A DNA stretch of 64,000 bases. Origin: Gordonia terrae. GTDB lineage: Bacteria > Actinomycetota > Actinomycetes > Mycobacteriales > Mycobacteriaceae. This document shows, one piece after another, positions 13,877 to 20,004 of this stretch. A program made the translations under genes and the position numbers. The notes under the pieces are model-generated. The model searched no databases. It had not been told where the DNA came from and worked only from the letters and a program-made list of their open reading frames with translations. The stretch covers positions 5,518,001 to 5,582,000 of the forward strand of contig NZ_CP016594.1 in NCBI RefSeq assembly GCF_001698225.1. Direction: 5' to 3'. Each line of letters starts with the position of its first letter. Position 1 is the stretch's first letter.

Positions 13877-15049
13877 TCACCCGTGCACGCCGTCGTCGAC
13901 GCTCAGTGGGGGCCGCAGGACCAGGACGGTCACGATCCCGACGAGGAAGACCGCGGTCAGTGCGAACGGAACCGGGATCACGGGATCCAGCAGTACGAGC
14001 AGCGCACCCACCGGGACCACGGTGTTCACCAGTCGATCAGCATTGGCACGCAGCGCGATCCACCAGATCCCGATGATGAAGACCGCGATCGGGATCGTCA
14101 CGGTGAACGACGCCTGGGTCTCGGTGAGCTCACTGTGGTGCGTCAAGACGTCGATCTCGACTTCGATCCCGGCCGAGAACGCACCCGCCGCGGCGAAGAC
14201 GAAGTAGTGCACGTATCCGTATCGGAGTGAATCGACGAGCATCCCGCCGATGGCCCGGTGGTGCGGGGGCCAGAAGTAGATCCACCACAGCGCGGCGGTC
14301 GCGATGAACGTGAGGATCGCGATCGAGATGAGGGGCGCGAGTTCCTGCTCACTGTGCAGCGCCTCGATGATCGCATTCGACGAGGCCAGCAGACTCTCGC
14401 CGAGCAGGATGAGCGTGAACAGGCCGTACCTCTCGGTGATGTGGTGCGGGTGCCACGGTGTGTTCCCCTGCCGTTCGGCGATCACGGGCACCGCGAGCTC
14501 GGCACCGACGAGCACCACGAACCCGACCGTCGCCGCGGCACCCGACGGGACGAGCAGCCAGAGCAGCCAGAGAACCTGGACGAGCGCGATCCCGGCAGCG
14601 TAGATCTGGGTCGTCCGGCGACGGTCACCGGCCGAGCCGGAAGCGCGCAGCCACTGGGCGACCATCGCGACGCGCATGATCACGTAACCGACGACCACCA
14701 GCCCGAACTCGTGGTCGACGAAGGCGGGCTCGATCCCCGCGGCCAACACCAGCACGCCCGCCATCTGCACGAAGGTCAGGACCCGATAGAGCCAGTCGTC
14801 GGTGCCGAACGACGTCGCGAACCAGGTGAAGTTCATCCACGCCCACCAGATGGCGAAGAACACGAAGGCGTACGACACCACACCGTCGACGATGTGGTCC
14901 TCGGTCAGTGCGTGATGCAGCTGGACCGCCGCGATACTCACCGCCACCACGAAGACCAGATCGAAGAACAGCTCGAGCGTGCTCGCGGCCCGACCCGGTT
15001 CGGCCGGGTCCCGCGGGCGCATGGTGCTCAGGTGAAATCGCGTGGACAT
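13877..15049 (-). CDS. Low-temperature-requirement A (LtrA) family membrane protein
   Basis: A 390-residue polytopic protein of the LtrA family. The diagnostic N-terminal segment TLELFFDLVFVVAVS (about residues 24-38) and the central HHITERYGLFTLILLGES motif (about residues 213-230) are intact, with roughly ten hydrophobic helices. ATG 15049 is preferred, with GGGGGTT about 9 bases upstream; a GTG at 15073 is in frame. The molecular function is unknown; the name comes from a Listeria cold-sensitive mutant. It is divergent from fadD36. Confidence 0.88.
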   Translation of the reverse strand: MSTRFHLSTMRPRDPAEPGRAASTLELFFDLVFVVAVSIAAVQLHHALTEDHIVDGVVSYAFVFFAIWWAWMNFTWFATSFGTDDWLYRVLTFVQMAGVLVLAAGIEPAFVDHEFGLVVVGYVIMRVAMVAQWLRASGSAGDRRRTTQIYAAGIALVQVLWLLWLLVPSGAAATVGFVVLVGAELAVPVIAERQGNTPWHPHHITERYGLFTLILLGESLLASSNAIIEALHSEQELAPLISIAILTFIATAALWWIYFWPPHHRAIGGMLVDSLRYGYVHYFVFAAAGAFSAGIEVEIDVLTHHSELTETQASFTVTIPIAVFIIGIWWIALRANADRLVNTVVPVGALLVLLDPVIPVPFALTAVFLVGIVTVLVLRPPLSVDDGVHG

Positions 15050-15222
15050 CGTTGCCAACCCCCGATCGGTCACTGCGTGTGGACGAGATCATGCCACCGG
15101 AGCCTCAGCGGACGCGGGTGCGGCGCCGTGGGGCGATGGCTCGGCCGTCGGCGCACGCCGCGTGACCTCGACGATCAGCGCAGGTGACGGGGAGATTCGC
15201 CCCGCCGTGGCACAGTGAAGAC

Positions 15223-16614
15223 GTGCTGCTGCCCACCCTGACCCCCACCGCGCCGGACGACCCTGCCGTGATCCGCGTCGGCGACGACAAGCTGTCGCGC
15301 GAAGACCTGGTCGGGGCGGCGACCGCGGTGGCCGAACGGATCGCCGGCGCGCGCACCGTCGCAGTCCTGGCCACGCCGACCGTGGAAACCGTGCTCGCGG
15401 TGGTCGGCGCCCTGATCGCCGGAGTCCCGGTCGTCCCCGTTCCGCCCGACTCGGGTCCGCGCGAGTTCGAGCACATCCTCGCCGATTCCGGCGCGCAGGC
15501 CTGGCTCGGGCAGGCCCCGGCCGAGCCGACCCTGCCGGTCATCCCGGTCCGGCGGTACGCGAAATCGTGGCACCGACACCCCGAACCGCACGCCGACTCG
15601 ACGGCGCTGATCCTCTACACGTCCGGAACGACCGGCCTCCCCAAGGGCGTGCCGATCACCCGCCAGAGCATCGCCGAGGGACTCGATGCACTCGCCGACG
15701 CCTGGCTGTGGACAGCCGACGACACTCTGGCGCATGGCCTTCCGCTGTTCCACGTCCACGGACTGATCCTGGGGGTCCTCGGCCCGCTGCGGCGCGGTGG
15801 GCGACTGATCCACACCGTCGCGCCGACGGCCGACGCATACGCCGCCGCTGCTGGTGCAGGCGCGAGCATGTACTTCGGGGTGCCGACGGTCTGGAACCGC
15901 GTCGCCGCCGAACCTGCTGCCGCGCAGTTACTCTCGTCGGCAAGGGTGCTCGTGTCGGGAAGCGCCCCGCTACCCGTTCCGGTCTTCGACCGCATACACG
16001 AACTCACCGGGCACCAGATCGTCGAGCGCTACGGCATGACCGAGACGCTGATCACCGTCAGTACCCGCGTCGACGGGGAACGACGCCCCGGGTGGGTGGG
16101 AGTGCCTCTCGCCCATGTGGAAACCCGACTCCTGGACAACGGCGAGCCACTACCGCACGACGGCGAGAGCGTCGGCGATCTCCACGTCCGTGGGCCGATG
16201 TTGGCGTCGGGGTATCTCAATCGCCCGGATGCCACCGCCGAATCGTGGCTTCCCGACGGTTTTTTCGCGACCGGGGACGTCGCCGTCATCGGCGCGGACG
16301 GAATGCACCGGATCGTCGGCCGACGTGCGACCGACCTCATCAAGTCCGGCGGGTTCCGCATCGGAGCCGGTGAGATCGAGACCGTGCTGCTCGCCCACCC
16401 TGCGGTCCGCGAGGTGGCCGTGATCGGCGTACCCGACGACTACCTGGGACAGCGCATCGTCGCCTATGTCGTCGGCGACGAGGTCGCCGACACCGAACTC
16501 ATCGAGTTCGTCGCCGGCGAGTTGTCGAATCACAAACGGCCGCGCGAGATCCGGTTCGTCGAGTCCCTTCCGCGCAATGCGATGGGCAAGGTGCAGAAAA
16601 AGCTGCTGGACTGA
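15223..16614 (+). CDS. fadD36: FadD36-type acyl-CoA (malonyl-CoA-like) synthetase
   Basis: A 463-residue adenylate-forming ligase that activates a short or dicarboxylic acid with ATP and CoA. The P-loop motif LILYTSGTTGLPKG (about residues 129-142), the adenine-site GMTETL (about 271-276), the TGDVAV hinge region and the C-terminal catalytic lysine motif in GKVQKKLL are present. GTG 15223 is chosen because VLLPTLTPTA aligns with the start of M. tuberculosis FadD36 (recalled from memory); an earlier GTG at 15184 adds 13 unrelated residues. No ribosome site precedes it, so it may be leaderless. Just 12 bases after its stop the inverted-repeat nuclease cassette begins. Confidence 0.85.
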   Translation: MLLPTLTPTAPDDPAVIRVGDDKLSREDLVGAATAVAERIAGARTVAVLATPTVETVLAVVGALIAGVPVVPVPPDSGPREFEHILADSGAQAWLGQAPAEPTLPVIPVRRYAKSWHRHPEPHADSTALILYTSGTTGLPKGVPITRQSIAEGLDALADAWLWTADDTLAHGLPLFHVHGLILGVLGPLRRGGRLIHTVAPTADAYAAAAGAGASMYFGVPTVWNRVAAEPAAAQLLSSARVLVSGSAPLPVPVFDRIHELTGHQIVERYGMTETLITVSTRVDGERRPGWVGVPLAHVETRLLDNGEPLPHDGESVGDLHVRGPMLASGYLNRPDATAESWLPDGFFATGDVAVIGADGMHRIVGRRATDLIKSGGFRIGAGEIETVLLAHPAVREVAVIGVPDDYLGQRIVAYVVGDEVADTELIEFVAGELSNHKRPREIRFVESLPRNAMGKVQKKLLD

Positions 16615-16626
16615 GCCACTCGTCTT

Positions 16627-16686
16627 TGAAAACCGCCCGGTGGGCCCGACCCGGCAACGCGCTGCGGGGTCTCCGTTTTCCAGGGG
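16627..16686. repeat. Left 60-bp inverted repeat of nuclease cassette
   Basis: The outer end reads TGAAAACCGCCCGGTGGG (16627-16644) and is a perfect 18-bp inverted match to the right repeat's outer end (17672-17689). Across the full 60 bases the two copies match at 42 positions by eye without gaps. The left element has its own closing arm at 16685-16695 (GGTGGTTTTCA). It starts 12 bases after the fadD36 stop. Confidence 0.85.
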
Positions 16687-16768
16687 TGGTTTTCAGATCG
16701 CGATGCAGTTGTCCACAGGCGCCGCCGGCCCCGATCGCTGACCGGCGACATGATCGACACTGTCTCGC

Positions 16769-17623
16769 ATGGACTTCGACGAGCTCATCGAGCGGTTCGG
16801 CGGCGTGGTCGCCACCCACCAGCTCCTCGCCGCGGGTGAGACCACCGCGTCGATCCGAGATGCCCACCGTTCCGGCAGGCTCACGTCCATCCGGCATGGG
16901 TGGTACCGCACTCCCACCGCCGATCCGGAAGTGGTCGGCGCCGTCGCGGATGACGGCGTCGTCTCCTGTGCGAGTGCGCTGCGGCGCCATGGCCTCTGGA
17001 TACCCGAACATCCCGCAGCGCTCCACTCTCGTGTGACACGCCATCAGCGTCGACGGTCCCACGACCGATGCCGCCGATACGGCCGGCCCACCCCTGCCCG
17101 CGGCGCCGTCGACGATGTGGCGACAGCACTGCAGTACGCCGCCCGGTGTTTCGACGTCGAGGGTTTCGTCATTCTCTGCGACTCCGCGCTCAACAGCGGC
17201 AAGATCACACCCGAACGCCTCCGTGCCGAATTCGACGACGCGCCGATGTTCATCCGGCGCGCGATCGGCAAGACCAATCGCCTCGCGGCGTCGGGAACCG
17301 AGACCGCGGCCCGACTACGGCTCGAGAGTGCCGGACTGCGGGTCGCTGTCCAGCATCGGGTACCCGGGGTCGGTTGGGTCGACCTGGTGGTCGGACAGCG
17401 CCTCGCGCTCGAGTTGGACAGCGTCGAACACCACACCGGTGTCGAGAAGTACGAAGAGGATCGTGCCCGAGACCGCAAGTTGATCGCGCACGGTTACTTT
17501 CCGTTGCGACTCACCTACGCGCAGGTGTTCAGGGACTGGGCCTCCACCTACGCCGACATCGCTCGAATCATCGCGGGCGGTTATCACCGCAGCCGATCAC
17601 CGGCCTGGCGGACGACCCACTGA
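16769..17623 (+). CDS. AbiEi-like N-domain plus DUF559 (Vsr-like) nuclease
   Basis: A 284-residue protein. The N-terminal part resembles the winged-helix domain of type IV AbiEi antitoxins (GGVVATHQLLAAGETTASIR, then LTSIRHGWYRTP). The C-terminal part is a DUF559/Vsr-like restriction-endonuclease fold: the first acidic residue in TETAARLRLESAG, the VDLVVGQRLALELDS core with D/ExK-type spacing, then EEDRARDRKLIAHGYFPLRLTYAQVF. The ATG at 16769 follows a -10-like GACACT by 7 bases, suggesting a leaderless message. No AbiEii nucleotidyltransferase toxin gene is adjacent, so it is not a standard toxin-antitoxin pair. It is the only gene between the two inverted repeats and probably a solitary nuclease or selfish gene. 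Function inferred. Confidence 0.82.
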   Translation: MDFDELIERFGGVVATHQLLAAGETTASIRDAHRSGRLTSIRHGWYRTPTADPEVVGAVADDGVVSCASALRRHGLWIPEHPAALHSRVTRHQRRRSHDRCRRYGRPTPARGAVDDVATALQYAARCFDVEGFVILCDSALNSGKITPERLRAEFDDAPMFIRRAIGKTNRLAASGTETAARLRLESAGLRVAVQHRVPGVGWVDLVVGQRLALELDSVEHHTGVEKYEEDRARDRKLIAHGYFPLRLTYAQVFRDWASTYADIARIIAGGYHRSRSPAWRTTH

Positions 17624-17629
17624 ACTCCG

Positions 17630-17689
17630 CCCGTCAGAAACGGACAGTCTGCGATGTGTCGCCGAGTGCCTCCCACCGGGCGGTTTTCA
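17630..17689. repeat. Right 60-bp inverted repeat of nuclease cassette
   Basis: It begins 6 bases after the nuclease stop codon and ends 12 bases before the stop of the convergent hydrolase gene. Its outer 18 bases, CCCACCGGGCGGTTTTCA, are the exact reverse complement of the left repeat's end. The inner parts (here CAGAAACGGACAGTCTGCG, left GGAAAACGGAGACCCCGC on the opposite strand) are related but diverged. Confidence 0.85.
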
Positions 17690-17701
17690 GAGGCCCCGAC
17701 G

Positions 17702-18889
17702 TCACTGAGCCCACGACCGTTCGGCCAGCCACTCCGTGATGGTCGCGACCGCCTCCTTCAGGTGCGGGATCTGTTCGCGCCCCGAGTAGTAGTGCGTCGC
17801 ACCGCCTACGGTGTGCAGCGTCTTGTCGGGATGACCCACCGCGTCGAACAGGCGGCGGGTGTGACTGGGCGTGCACGCATTGTCGGCGGAGTTGCCGATG
17901 ACCAGTGTCGGGATCGCGAGGTCGGCCGCGCAGCGCGGGCCGTCGCCGTAGGCGTCATCGAAACTCCACTGCGACAACCAACTTCGCAGGGTGGTGAACC
18001 GGGCGAGGCCGACGGGACCCATGTTCACGATCCGCGGATCGCCCAGGTAGCAACCGAGCTCGCGGTCGTTGGGGTCGACGGTGAGATCCAGCCACCGCGG
18101 ATCGGCCATCGTTCCGTGGACGATGAACCCGCGCTCCATCAGCGGTTCGCCGTGATCGCGGAGGTCGGCGAGTTGTTCCTTGACCCAGGCGGTGATCCGG
18201 CGGTTGCGTGCGATCTGCGCAGCGCGGTACCGGTCGAGGAACTCCGCCGAATACGGCGGTTGATTCGGATTCGACGGATCGTACAGATCCAGCTCCGGGT
18301 CGCGGTGGTGCGGATCCGACTCGTCGAGAATCGACGGGTCCATCCACTCGGTCAGGGTTCCGTGTCGCGACACGTGCGCGGCGAGCAACATCATGCCGTC
18401 CGCTGCGGGCAGGTCGAGGGCGGTCAGGTCGGGCGGCTCGCCGGCGGGAGTCGCGGTGACCGTCGCGTGCTGGGCCTGCTGCTGGTAGTAGAGCGAAAGA
18501 GCGCCGCCGCCGCTCCAACCGGCGAGGATCACCTTCTCGTAGCCCAGCCGTTCGCGCGCATCCCGTACACAGGCACCGAGATCCTGTACGACCTTCTCCA
18601 TGATCAACGCACTGTCGACGCCGCGATACCGGCTGTTGCAGTAGATGACGTGATGGCCGGCGCGGGCGAGCGCATTGGTCATCGGCAGGTAGGCCCCGCC
18701 CCCGATCGGATGCATGAAGACGATGACGTTCTTCGACGGCACCCCCTTGGGCCGGAGCAGGTAACTCTCGAGGACCACGCTCTCGGTGACCCCGCCGTAG
18801 GTGTCCTGGTATGCCGAGAGGTCATCGAAGACAACGAGATAGGGGATGCGGTCGTATTCATGCCGGGTCGGGCCGGAGGGGGTGCTCAT
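17702..18889 (-). CDS. Alpha/beta hydrolase paired with HGD-like cupin
   Basis: A 395-residue alpha/beta hydrolase. The nucleophile elbow GWSGGG places Ser126, the oxyanion strand is VFMHPIGGGAYLP (about residues 58-70), and a late ATHYYSG supplies the likely catalytic His, with a D in GNSADNAC. Length and fold fit cleavage of a C-C or ester bond in an aromatic or polyketide-like substrate. ATG 18889 overlaps the upstream cupin stop by ATGA, so the two are translationally coupled. The much longer open frame to 19345 overlaps the cupin gene and is rejected. Substrate unknown; ring-fission product hydrolase is plausible from context. Confidence 0.82.
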   Translation of the reverse strand: MSTPSGPTRHEYDRIPYLVVFDDLSAYQDTYGGVTESVVLESYLLRPKGVPSKNVIVFMHPIGGGAYLPMTNALARAGHHVIYCNSRYRGVDSALIMEKVVQDLGACVRDARERLGYEKVILAGWSGGGALSLYYQQQAQHATVTATPAGEPPDLTALDLPAADGMMLLAAHVSRHGTLTEWMDPSILDESDPHHRDPELDLYDPSNPNQPPYSAEFLDRYRAAQIARNRRITAWVKEQLADLRDHGEPLMERGFIVHGTMADPRWLDLTVDPNDRELGCYLGDPRIVNMGPVGLARFTTLRSWLSQWSFDDAYGDGPRCAADLAIPTLVIGNSADNACTPSHTRRLFDAVGHPDKTLHTVGGATHYYSGREQIPHLKEAVATITEWLAERSWAQ

Positions 18890-20004
18890 ACGCGTGTCCC
18901 GTCCTCGGTCTCCGCGGCGTCGGGCAGGCTCGAGGCGAGCATTGCCGGTGCGGCGATGAGTCGACGACGCGTGTCGATCGAGATCACCTGCCATTCCACC
19001 CGATCGAATTCGTCGAACTTGCGACGGGATCGTTCCCGCGCCCGCTCGGGGATGCCGTGGTGCATACCCTGGGGTGCGTGGGAGATCAGCCCCGGCGGCA
19101 TGCCGACGCCGAACATGCTGCCGCCGTGGAAGAATGCGATCTCGTCGAAGTCGGTGTTGCGGTGGTACCAGGGCAGTCGTTCGGCGCCCTTGCGCGCCTC
19201 GGCCGGGCGCGGCAGGAAGTTCATCACGTACACCCCGGTCGCCTGCATGAACAGATGGACCGTCGGCGGTAGGTGCACGGTCTCGGAGGTGATGACGTCG
19301 TAGTCCTCGATGTTGAAGGCAAACGGGAAATTGTCTCCGCGCCAACCCTCTACGTCGAGCGGATGGAAGGGGTAGAACAGCGAGGTCTGCCCCTCACGCT
19401 GGCGGAAGCGGACCTCGTACTCGTCTCGACCGTCACCGTCGAAAGCCTCGGCTTCGGGAACGACGACTAGCGACGAATCAAAGGGAAAGAACCTGCCGAG
19501 GACGCCGGGCTCGGGGACCCGGAACTCGTCGACCGCCTCGATGATGAGCAGCAGCGACGGGCCATCGGGTATCTGGCGGTAGGTGCATCCCTTCGGGATG
19601 TACACGTAATCACCGGGGCGGTAGGGCAGTCGGCCGAACTCGGTCTCGAAGTAGCCGGCGCCCTCGTGGACGAAGACGAGTTCGTCGCCGTCGACGGGCC
19701 GAAACCAAAAGGGAGCGGCTTCGTTTCGACGACTCAACGAGATTCGGCAGTCCTCGTTGTGGAACATCAGGAGCGGTTCGCCGGCGGGGTCGGACTGATC
19801 GGTGGGTGTGAGGTCGGTGACGATCCGGTCGACGCCGGTGTGGGTGCCCACCGCGCGGAACTGCGTCGGGTCGTTGCGGCGGTACAGGTGCGCCGTGCGG
19901 CCGGTGAATCCATACCGACCGAGCTCATCGTCTTTCAGGTCGTCGACATCTCGGTGCACCTGCCGAGGCGTGCGCCCCTTGCGGTGCTGGATGAACGATT
20001 CCAT
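18886..20004 (-). CDS. Homogentisate 1,2-dioxygenase-like cupin
   Basis: A 372-residue two-cupin protein resembling homogentisate dioxygenase. Seen features are the N-terminal cupin (ELVFVHEGAGYFETEFGRLPYRPGDYVYIPKG, in two strands) and the C-terminal metal region WYHRNTDFDEIAFFHGG followed by HAPQGMHHGIPE. In classical enzymes the iron ligands are His-x5-Glu then His; here the Glu is one position later and Asp occupies the usual place, so the metal site may differ. It is shorter than classical enzymes (about 440). Coupled to a hydrolase and divergent from a TetR gene, it probably opens an aromatic ring, though not necessarily homogentisate. ATG 20004 has CAGGAG about 6 bases upstream. Confidence 0.78.
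   Translation of the reverse strand: MESFIQHRKGRTPRQVHRDVDDLKDDELGRYGFTGRTAHLYRRNDPTQFRAVGTHTGVDRIVTDLTPTDQSDPAGEPLLMFHNEDCRISLSRRNEAAPFWFRPVDGDELVFVHEGAGYFETEFGRLPYRPGDYVYIPKGCTYRQIPDGPSLLLIIEAVDEFRVPEPGVLGRFFPFDSSLVVVPEAEAFDGDGRDEYEVRFRQREGQTSLFYPFHPLDVEGWRGDNFPFAFNIEDYDVITSETVHLPPTVHLFMQATGVYVMNFLPRPAEARKGAERLPWYHRNTDFDEIAFFHGGSMFGVGMPPGLISHAPQGMHHGIPERARERSRRKFDEFDRVEWQVISIDTRRRLIAAPAMLASSLPDAAETEDGTRV

What the first reader, a model, noticed from the sequence alone, without database searches (positions are those of the whole stretch)
16627..17689. One-gene AbiEi/DUF559 nuclease cassette bounded by 60-bp inverted repeats
A solitary AbiEi-like plus Vsr-like nuclease gene lies exactly between two 60-bp inverted repeats (18 bp perfect at the outer ends, 42 of 60 matches overall). 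It sits in the gap between two convergent genes, 12 bases from each stop codon. There is no transposase and no AbiEii toxin. The layout suggests a minimal mobile unit where the nuclease may cut at repeat-like sites, similar in logic to a homing endonuclease.
Basis: partly seen in the sequence, partly recalled or inferred. Interest (0 to 1): 0.75.

Follow-up and report, generated by a model that had tools for sequence, protein, structure and literature searches.

The report
Nuclease gene with dispersed DNA palindromes
A lone bacterial gene for a predicted DNA-binding, DNA-cutting enzyme sits between two copies of a roughly 70-letter DNA palindrome, more copies of which are scattered through the same genome, suggesting a so far undescribed partnership between a nuclease and a repeat family.

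Summary
Each is a 69-bp palindromic element (16627-16695; 17621-17689) of a dispersed family with seven places in the window's own genome. In the genus, genomes with an ortholog of the gene hold more copies: at least 8 strand-matches in 8 of 11, against 2 of 43 without it (model-building genomes left out).

The pattern is general. Of 108 scored loci from 51 genomes of the genus, 41 have strongly matching repeats on both sides of the gene, against 4 of 2999 placebo placements. The repeat differs between loci and goes with the protein even where neighbours differ. In another genus two species have palindrome-gene-palindrome where two close relatives have one palindrome.

The protein joins an AbiEi-like DNA-binding region to a Vsr/EDxHD-type nuclease domain. 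At this locus it is old: 11 of 13 genomes keep it, 4 in flipped orientation.

Best reading: a system that works like REP/REPIN-RAYT with an unrelated enzyme. That the nuclease acts on the palindromes is inferred, not shown; terminators, operators, homing or a transposase in trans remain rivals.

The parts
16627..16695 (+). left 69-bp palindromic element (ends TGAAAACCGCCC / GGGTGGTTTTCA)
   Evidence: model R2, 69.8 bits (the model was built partly from this sequence)
16769..17623 (+). gene: AbiEi-like N-terminal region (profile matches to AbiEi chains over about 6-163) plus Vsr/EDxHD-type nuclease domain (about 176-267), 284 aa; unchanged in 14 of 14 aligned relatives: G176-T-E178, D205, E215, D217, D231-R232, R234
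17621..17689 (-). right 69-bp palindromic element, inverted relative to the left one; overlaps the stop codon of the gene
   Evidence: model R2, 69.5 bits (the model was built partly from this sequence)
15226..16614 (+). left neighbour: acyl-CoA synthetase (fadD36 type); a longer reading starts at GTG 15184
17702..18889 (-). right neighbour: alpha/beta hydrolase, convergent with the left neighbour

Best explanation
This is one locus of a system that works like REP/REPIN-RAYT: a mostly vertically kept nuclease gene lies between two copies of a short palindromic element, and copies of the same element are dispersed, mainly between genes, in the same genome. SHOWN: gene bracketed by palindromes; dispersed copies of nearly fixed length without a nuclease gene beside them; copy number tied to presence of the cognate gene; palindrome sequence going with the protein subfamily; sites that differ between species by the gene plus one palindrome. 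INFERRED: the AbiEi-type region binds the inverted end units of the palindrome (a known AbiEi binds inverted repeats of 11 bp, 23 with mismatches), the Vsr/EDxHD domain nicks or cuts the element, and repair from another copy spreads or re-copies palindromes and keeps their arms complementary. The gene is sometimes lost by recombination between its two palindromes, leaving one copy, or flipped by recombination between them.
For: Genus: of 163 matches 111 places were oriented and 108 scored (3 frameshifted or split dropped): flank score >=20 in 41 of 108 against 4 of 2999 placebo placements, >=16.5 in 49 of 108 against 33 of 2999; direct score above all of 591 mismatched pairs in 40 of 108, inverted score above their 99% quantile in 39. 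Other genera of the family: 10 of 21 loci at >=16.5; other families of the phylum: 7 of 13. Own genome: seven places. R2 association 8 of 11 against 2 of 43. 63 dispersed elements: none has a nuclease homolog within 1.2 kb. Scan of 84,980 species genomes for a 20-bp core: 15 stretches, 11 of them in the two Gordonia species that carry the cognate gene. Genus g10: end motif in 5 of 151 genomes, all g10, reversed-pattern control 0. Same g10 locus: two palindromes with the gene in G181 and G114, one palindrome in G130 and G145; G181 flanks 96.6/95.5% and 92.5/94.1% identical to those. Locus B: occupied in 3 species, one palindrome in G018. Window locus: one palindrome in G029, half unit in G022; flipped in 4 of 11. 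Arms: 43 double-change cells against 26.2 +/- 3.8, 0 of 500 shuffles. Non-syntenic pairs with similar repeats: 3 of 1200 sampled at <50% protein identity, 25 of 903 at 50-60%, 12 of 130 at 60-75%. Fold: 6y8q, 3r3p, 3hrl.
Against: No binding, cleavage or movement was observed. More than half of the 108 loci show no significant shared flank repeat (for L024 and L034 the downstream flank was misplaced, so the count is slightly low); no inverted score exceeds the largest mismatched pair (119.5). Seven of ten elements compared between G000, G015 and G039 have a counterpart at the same site in another of the three, so spread is slow or over. The one clean presence/absence site of a dispersed element (G181 against G130 and G145) shows no convincing target duplication; the empty sites keep CCTGAAAAC or GCTGAAAAC and the outgroup may hold a remnant, so loss is as possible as gain. 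G012 and G041 have many R2 matches without a >=60% ortholog; G022 has matches without the gene at this locus; G130 and G145 keep many palindromes without the gene at the compared locus. In one search the number of pair types is not raised (144 of 500 shuffles as high). The copy in G114 has an internal stop. Fold matches are weak (E 4e-3 to 3e-2; none <= 0.001) and the model moderate (pLDDT 71, 3 sequences). Species and syntenic loci are not independent samples.
Confidence: 0.62

Rival explanations
1. The palindromes are terminators or mRNA 3' stabilisers at gene ends; the nuclease gene merely sits in convergent gaps that carry them.
For: By a crude GC3 gene finder 46 of 55 dispersed elements are intergenic, of these 25 between convergent, 20 between tandem and 1 between divergent genes. 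They can form hairpins.
Against: No terminator-like site was found in window 16500-17800 (the scan asks for a T run). Ordinary terminators would not share sequence, nearly one length per family and a tie to the presence of one gene, nor bracket that gene with a different sequence at each locus.
Confidence: 0.13
2. The palindromes are operators: the AbiEi-like protein is an autoregulator, its dispersed sites are a regulon, and the nuclease domain acts elsewhere (defence or repair).
For: AbiEi of Streptococcus agalactiae binds two inverted repeats (11 bp perfect, N27) and represses its own promoter (PMC3985639, passages); the left element lies upstream of the gene.
Against: Dispersed copies are rarely between divergent genes (1 of 46); a second copy lies downstream of the gene.
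Confidence: 0.13
3. Homing-type element: the nuclease cuts single palindromes and the palindrome-gene-palindrome cassette is copied into the break, so that the gene itself spreads.
For: Occupied and unoccupied sites differ by gene plus one palindrome; similar palindromes at non-syntenic cassettes; nuclease domain near I-Bth0305I.
Against: Between G181 and G114 the gene is 77.8% and the flanks 84.0-86.7% identical, and the window locus is mostly vertical, so the cases seen fit loss at least as well; no recent gain of the gene was found; the cassette's own palindromes would be cut too.
Confidence: 0.07
4. MITE-like palindromes moved by an unrelated transposase acting in trans (a RAYT or an IS), with the nuclease gene as a passenger.
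For: Nearly fixed length and dispersed copies; a transposase gene (Pfam DUF772) abuts a palindrome in G035. Whether these genomes hold RAYTs was not tested.
Against: The palindrome sequence goes with this protein, and the protein sits between palindromes in several genera.
Confidence: 0.05

Closest known systems
REP/REPIN-RAYT (TnpA-REP, REPtron)
   Same: Single gene flanked by palindromes; dispersed extragenic palindromes whose number follows the gene; vertical inheritance; pairing of protein and palindrome (PMC8049555 passages; PMC8266576 abstract and introduction).
   Different: No HUH/Y1 domain found in the protein; AbiEi-like plus Vsr/EDxHD nuclease instead. The GTAG tag was not assessed. 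Elements are 69-73 bp in the families measured (longer in some genomes) and about 7-22 per genome (half the strand-matches) in the better-populated genomes, not hundreds.
EDxHD homing endonucleases (I-Bth0305I, 3r3p)
   Same: Among the nearest solved structures of the nuclease domain. That this enzyme belongs to the EDxHD family is recalled, not taken from a call.
   Different: Free-standing gene joined to an AbiEi-like region and associated with dispersed palindromes.
AbiE type IV toxin-antitoxin system (AbiEi)
   Same: AbiEi-like region over about residues 6-163; inverted repeats upstream of the gene.
   Different: No AbiEii partner beside the gene; nuclease domain added; palindromes also downstream and dispersed.
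Vsr-like DUF559 proteins such as VsrA of Caulobacter (PMC12907096, one passage)
   Same: DUF559-type nuclease domain.
   Different: Neither palindromes nor an AbiEi-like region is mentioned in the passage read.

Membership tests
REPtron / RAYT | HUH (Y1) transposase encoded by the associated gene | tested here: not met
   Pfam: only MTES_1575, DUF559 and AbiEi_4 at E 0.01 in 14 relatives; at E 1 the window protein adds AbiEi_3_N only
REPtron / RAYT | Dispersed extragenic palindromes cognate to the gene | tested here: met
REPtron / RAYT | Gene flanked by the palindromes | tested here: met
   41-49 of 108 loci by threshold; 10 of 21 in other genera
REPtron / RAYT | Protein processes the palindrome | not testable with these tools
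   needs biochemistry
REPtron / RAYT | GTAG (or CGTC) tag at the foot of the palindrome | not tested
   not searched
Homing endonuclease | Homing-type (EDxHD/Vsr) catalytic domain | tested here: inconclusive
   Profile match to 3r3p E 0.0059, Foldseek prob 1.0 but E 0.011; acidic residues unchanged in 14 of 14; activity unknown
Homing endonuclease | Gene interrupts its own cleavage site; intact site in alleles without the gene | tested here: inconclusive
   Unoccupied alleles carry one palindrome, but cleavage is unknown and loss is as likely
AbiE toxin-antitoxin | AbiEi with adjacent AbiEii toxin gene | tested here: not met
   Neighbours are acyl-CoA synthetase and hydrolase genes
Transposon with terminal inverted repeats | TIRs plus target-site duplication | tested here: not met
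   Elements are whole palindromes, direct at many loci; the 12 bases on either side of the window unit are not duplicates

The most novel reading that the evidence does not exclude
A second, independently evolved class of bacterial palindrome-propagating systems: AbiEi-EDxHD nucleases, each with its own dispersed hairpin family, present in several actinobacterial families, in which a repurposed toxin-antitoxin regulator targets a homing-type nuclease to hairpins so that repair copies the hairpin, and occasionally the gene, to new sites.
Probability: 0.45. Interest if true: 0.92.

Novelty: new variant of a known kind. Interest (0 to 1): 0.8.

Why it matters
TnpA-REP proteins are described as HUH enzymes (PMC8266576), and how REPs spread is called unresolved there. 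An unrelated nuclease with its own cognate palindromes would let one ask what the two systems share, would give actinobacteria a REP-like system that can be tested, and would suggest a role for proteins now seen only as AbiEi-like or DUF559/MTES_1575. The many protein-palindrome pairs with different sequences are a ready set for testing specificity.

Tried and rejected
Transposon with TIRs: rejected (whole palindromes, no duplication). L293 (G018) first looked like an empty site of the window locus; its palindrome lies upstream of fadD36 and it was dropped. Phage or plasmid carriage: 37 pattern stretches in viral contigs, none confirmed; 3 Tsukamurella plasmid records and 1 unannotated phage record at 29-39% identity. 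Rfam: no match up to E 1 in 15000-19500. Promoter and terminator scan: none found. Model R1 proved broad (matches in 40 of 59 genomes) and was not used for the association test. The mismatched-pair null has an inverted maximum of 119.5 whose source I did not trace; an independent placebo null was made. Palindrome score per flank against coding segments (up 38, down 46, both 22 of 127 above the 99% quantile) is not a fair control for intergenic DNA and is not relied on. L344 (G145) as a second insertion: the element is missing between the same genes in G130 and G114, but the gap differs by more than the element, so there is no clean footprint. Syntenic relations were judged by DNA similarity only, so some diverged synteny may be missed.

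Papers: ten searches (two searches listed only 10 of 1956 and 12 of 170 papers) showed no paper joining DUF559 or AbiEi-like nucleases with dispersed palindromes; AbiEi with DUF559 gave 0 papers. Most subscription papers and, by the tool's own statement, bioRxiv preprints are not in that library. Seen: PMC8266576 abstract, section list and introduction; PMC8049555, PMC3710099, PMC12907096, PMC3733652 and PMC3985639 passages; PMC1525189 abstract and section list; all others search listings.

Full report
Observation. The two inverted repeats are present as described: 18 bp perfect at the outer ends, 42 of 60 overall, 12 bases from each convergent stop codon. The exact 17-mer occurs nowhere else in the 5.70-Mb genome. 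Each arm is a complete 69-bp imperfect palindrome whose two ends match one another (TGAAAACCGCCC...GGGTGGTTTTCA on the left). The right one starts at the stop codon of the gene.

The gene. The 284-aa protein has an AbiEi-like region (PADLOC AbiEi 1.3e-8) and a Vsr-type nuclease domain (MTES_1575 2.9e-6 and DUF559 7.9e-4, both under Pfam's cut-offs). Among 14 aligned relatives MTES_1575 matches 14, DUF559 10 and AbiEi_4 10. G176-T-E178, D205, E215, D217, D231-R232 and R234 are unchanged in all 14. The profile finds 3hrl (E 0.0028) and I-Bth0305I, 3r3p (E 0.0059), among solved structures, and weakly AbiEi 6y8q (E 0.15). A model from three sequences (pLDDT 71) matches 6y8q, 3r3p and 3hrl by Foldseek with probability 0.99-1.0 but E-values of only 4e-3 to 3e-2.

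Relatives. Homologs are in 56 of 59 genomes of the genus, 163 matches in all; in 41 of 151 genomes drawn from the family, 8 of 31 genera, own genus included; and in 6 of 296 drawn from the phylum at E 1e-30, four of them outside the family. I oriented 111 of the 163 genus places, mostly the better-scoring ones, dropped three broken copies and scored 108 from 51 genomes for similarity between the 300 bases before and after the gene. 41 of 108 reach 20, against 4 of 2999 placebo placements in native DNA of three of these genomes; 49 of 108 reach 16.5 against 33 of 2999 (recounted). In the direct sense 40 of 108 exceed every one of 591 mismatched pairs; in the inverted sense 39 exceed their 99% quantile and none their maximum. 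Orthologous loci of related species are counted separately. The same pattern holds at 16.5 for 10 of 21 loci of other genera and 7 of 13 of other families, without a placebo of their own. More than half of the genus loci show no such repeat. The repeats differ from locus to locus. Among pairs of loci without detectable shared neighbours, similar repeats are found in 3 of 1200 sampled pairs under 50% protein identity, 25 of 903 at 50-60% and 12 of 130 at 60-75%: the repeat goes with the protein, not only with the place.

Dispersed copies. A 20-bp core shared by four of these loci was searched in 84,980 species genomes: 15 stretches, 7 in Gordonia rhizosphera, 4 in G. tangerina, 4 single hits in unrelated bacteria. 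Both Gordonia species carry the gene between two copies; their other nine stretches hold about 70-bp palindromes without the gene (L176 has a second copy close by). The arms vary but tend to stay complementary: 43 double-change cells against 26.2 expected from shuffles, 0 of 500 as high, though pair types are not raised (144 of 500) and relatedness is not removed by that control. A model of the window's own element, 10 rows from five genomes (own genome included), gives 14 strand-matches, that is seven places, in the window genome, the two flanking ones among them. Genomes with an ortholog of at least 60% identity have more matches: without the five model genomes, at least 8 strand-matches in 8 of 11 against 2 of 43. 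G012 and G041 are the exceptions. In genus g10 the end motif of another family occurs in 5 of 151 genomes, all g10, with no hit for the reversed pattern; where both ends match the pattern the elements are 73 bp long. Of 63 dispersed elements checked, none has a nuclease homolog within 1.2 kb. By a crude gene finder 46 of 55 are intergenic: 25 between convergent, 20 between tandem, 1 between divergent genes.

Occupied and unoccupied sites. In g10, G181 and G114 carry palindrome-gene-palindrome (the G114 copy with an internal stop), while G130 and G145 carry one palindrome between the same flanks, 96.6/95.5% and 92.5/94.1% identical to G181 on the two sides. At locus B in Gordonia, G055, G025 and G034 are occupied and G018 has one palindrome of the same family; in G015 and G039 the right-hand gene is followed by a palindrome of the window's family. 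At the window locus, of 13 genomes with both neighbours, 11 have the gene (G015 and G035 with frameshifted or split copies; in G048 the hydrolase is 1.4 kb further away), G029 has one palindrome and G022 a half unit. The gene is flipped in G003, G026, G035 and G048; the trees need at least two changes of orientation, or one and a separate insertion in G048. G022 lies inside the occupied clade on the hydrolase tree, which suggests loss. These data show an exchange between palindrome-gene-palindrome and one-palindrome states; loss explains most cases as well as gain.

Movement of dispersed copies. Of ten elements compared among G000, G015 and G039, seven have a counterpart at the same site in another of the three, at one site in all three; the other three lie in rearranged stretches. 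So the population is old. One element, at G181:C11:75827, is absent from G130 and G145. The empty sites read CCTGAAAAC or GCTGAAAAC, like the end of the element; this could be target choice or the scar of a deletion, and the outgroup G114 may hold a remnant. No target duplication can be claimed.

Interpretation. The anatomy is that of a REPtron (PMC8266576 introduction; PMC8049555 passages): palindromes dispersed between genes, a kept gene between copies, and pairing of protein and palindrome. The enzyme is unrelated: no HUH domain was found. AbiEi of Streptococcus agalactiae binds inverted repeats of 11 bp (23 with mismatches) spaced by 27 bases (PMC3985639 passages), which suggests that the end units of the palindrome are what this protein binds. 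The nuclease domain would then act on the element. That step is inference. Terminator, operator, homing and trans-mobilised readings are listed as rivals; the presence of RAYTs in these genomes was not tested.

Novelty. Ten literature searches showed nothing joining these proteins to palindromes; the library leaves out most subscription papers, so the claim is limited to it.

Noticed in passing
L063:1-1392 and L038 (G035): A transposase gene (Pfam DUF772) ends next to the centre of a palindrome beside the split nuclease gene; insertion sequences that target REP palindromes are reported in PMC1525189 (abstract).
   Followed up: partly
L035 (G015), L038 (G035), L034 (G018), L037 (G051): Several copies of the nuclease gene are broken by frameshifts, splits or stops while R2 palindromes are still found in those genomes.
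   Followed up: no
window 17575-17586: A one-mismatch copy of the end unit (TGATAACCGCCC on the minus strand) lies inside the 3' end of the gene; possibly chance.
   Followed up: no
L029 (G005), L160 (G026): In some genomes end units are repeated in tandem (about 13-14 bp each), making longer elements.
   Followed up: partly
L296, L300 against L175, L182, L291: The 3' side of the same gene carries palindromes of two different families in different species, as if such sites are reoccupied.
   Followed up: partly
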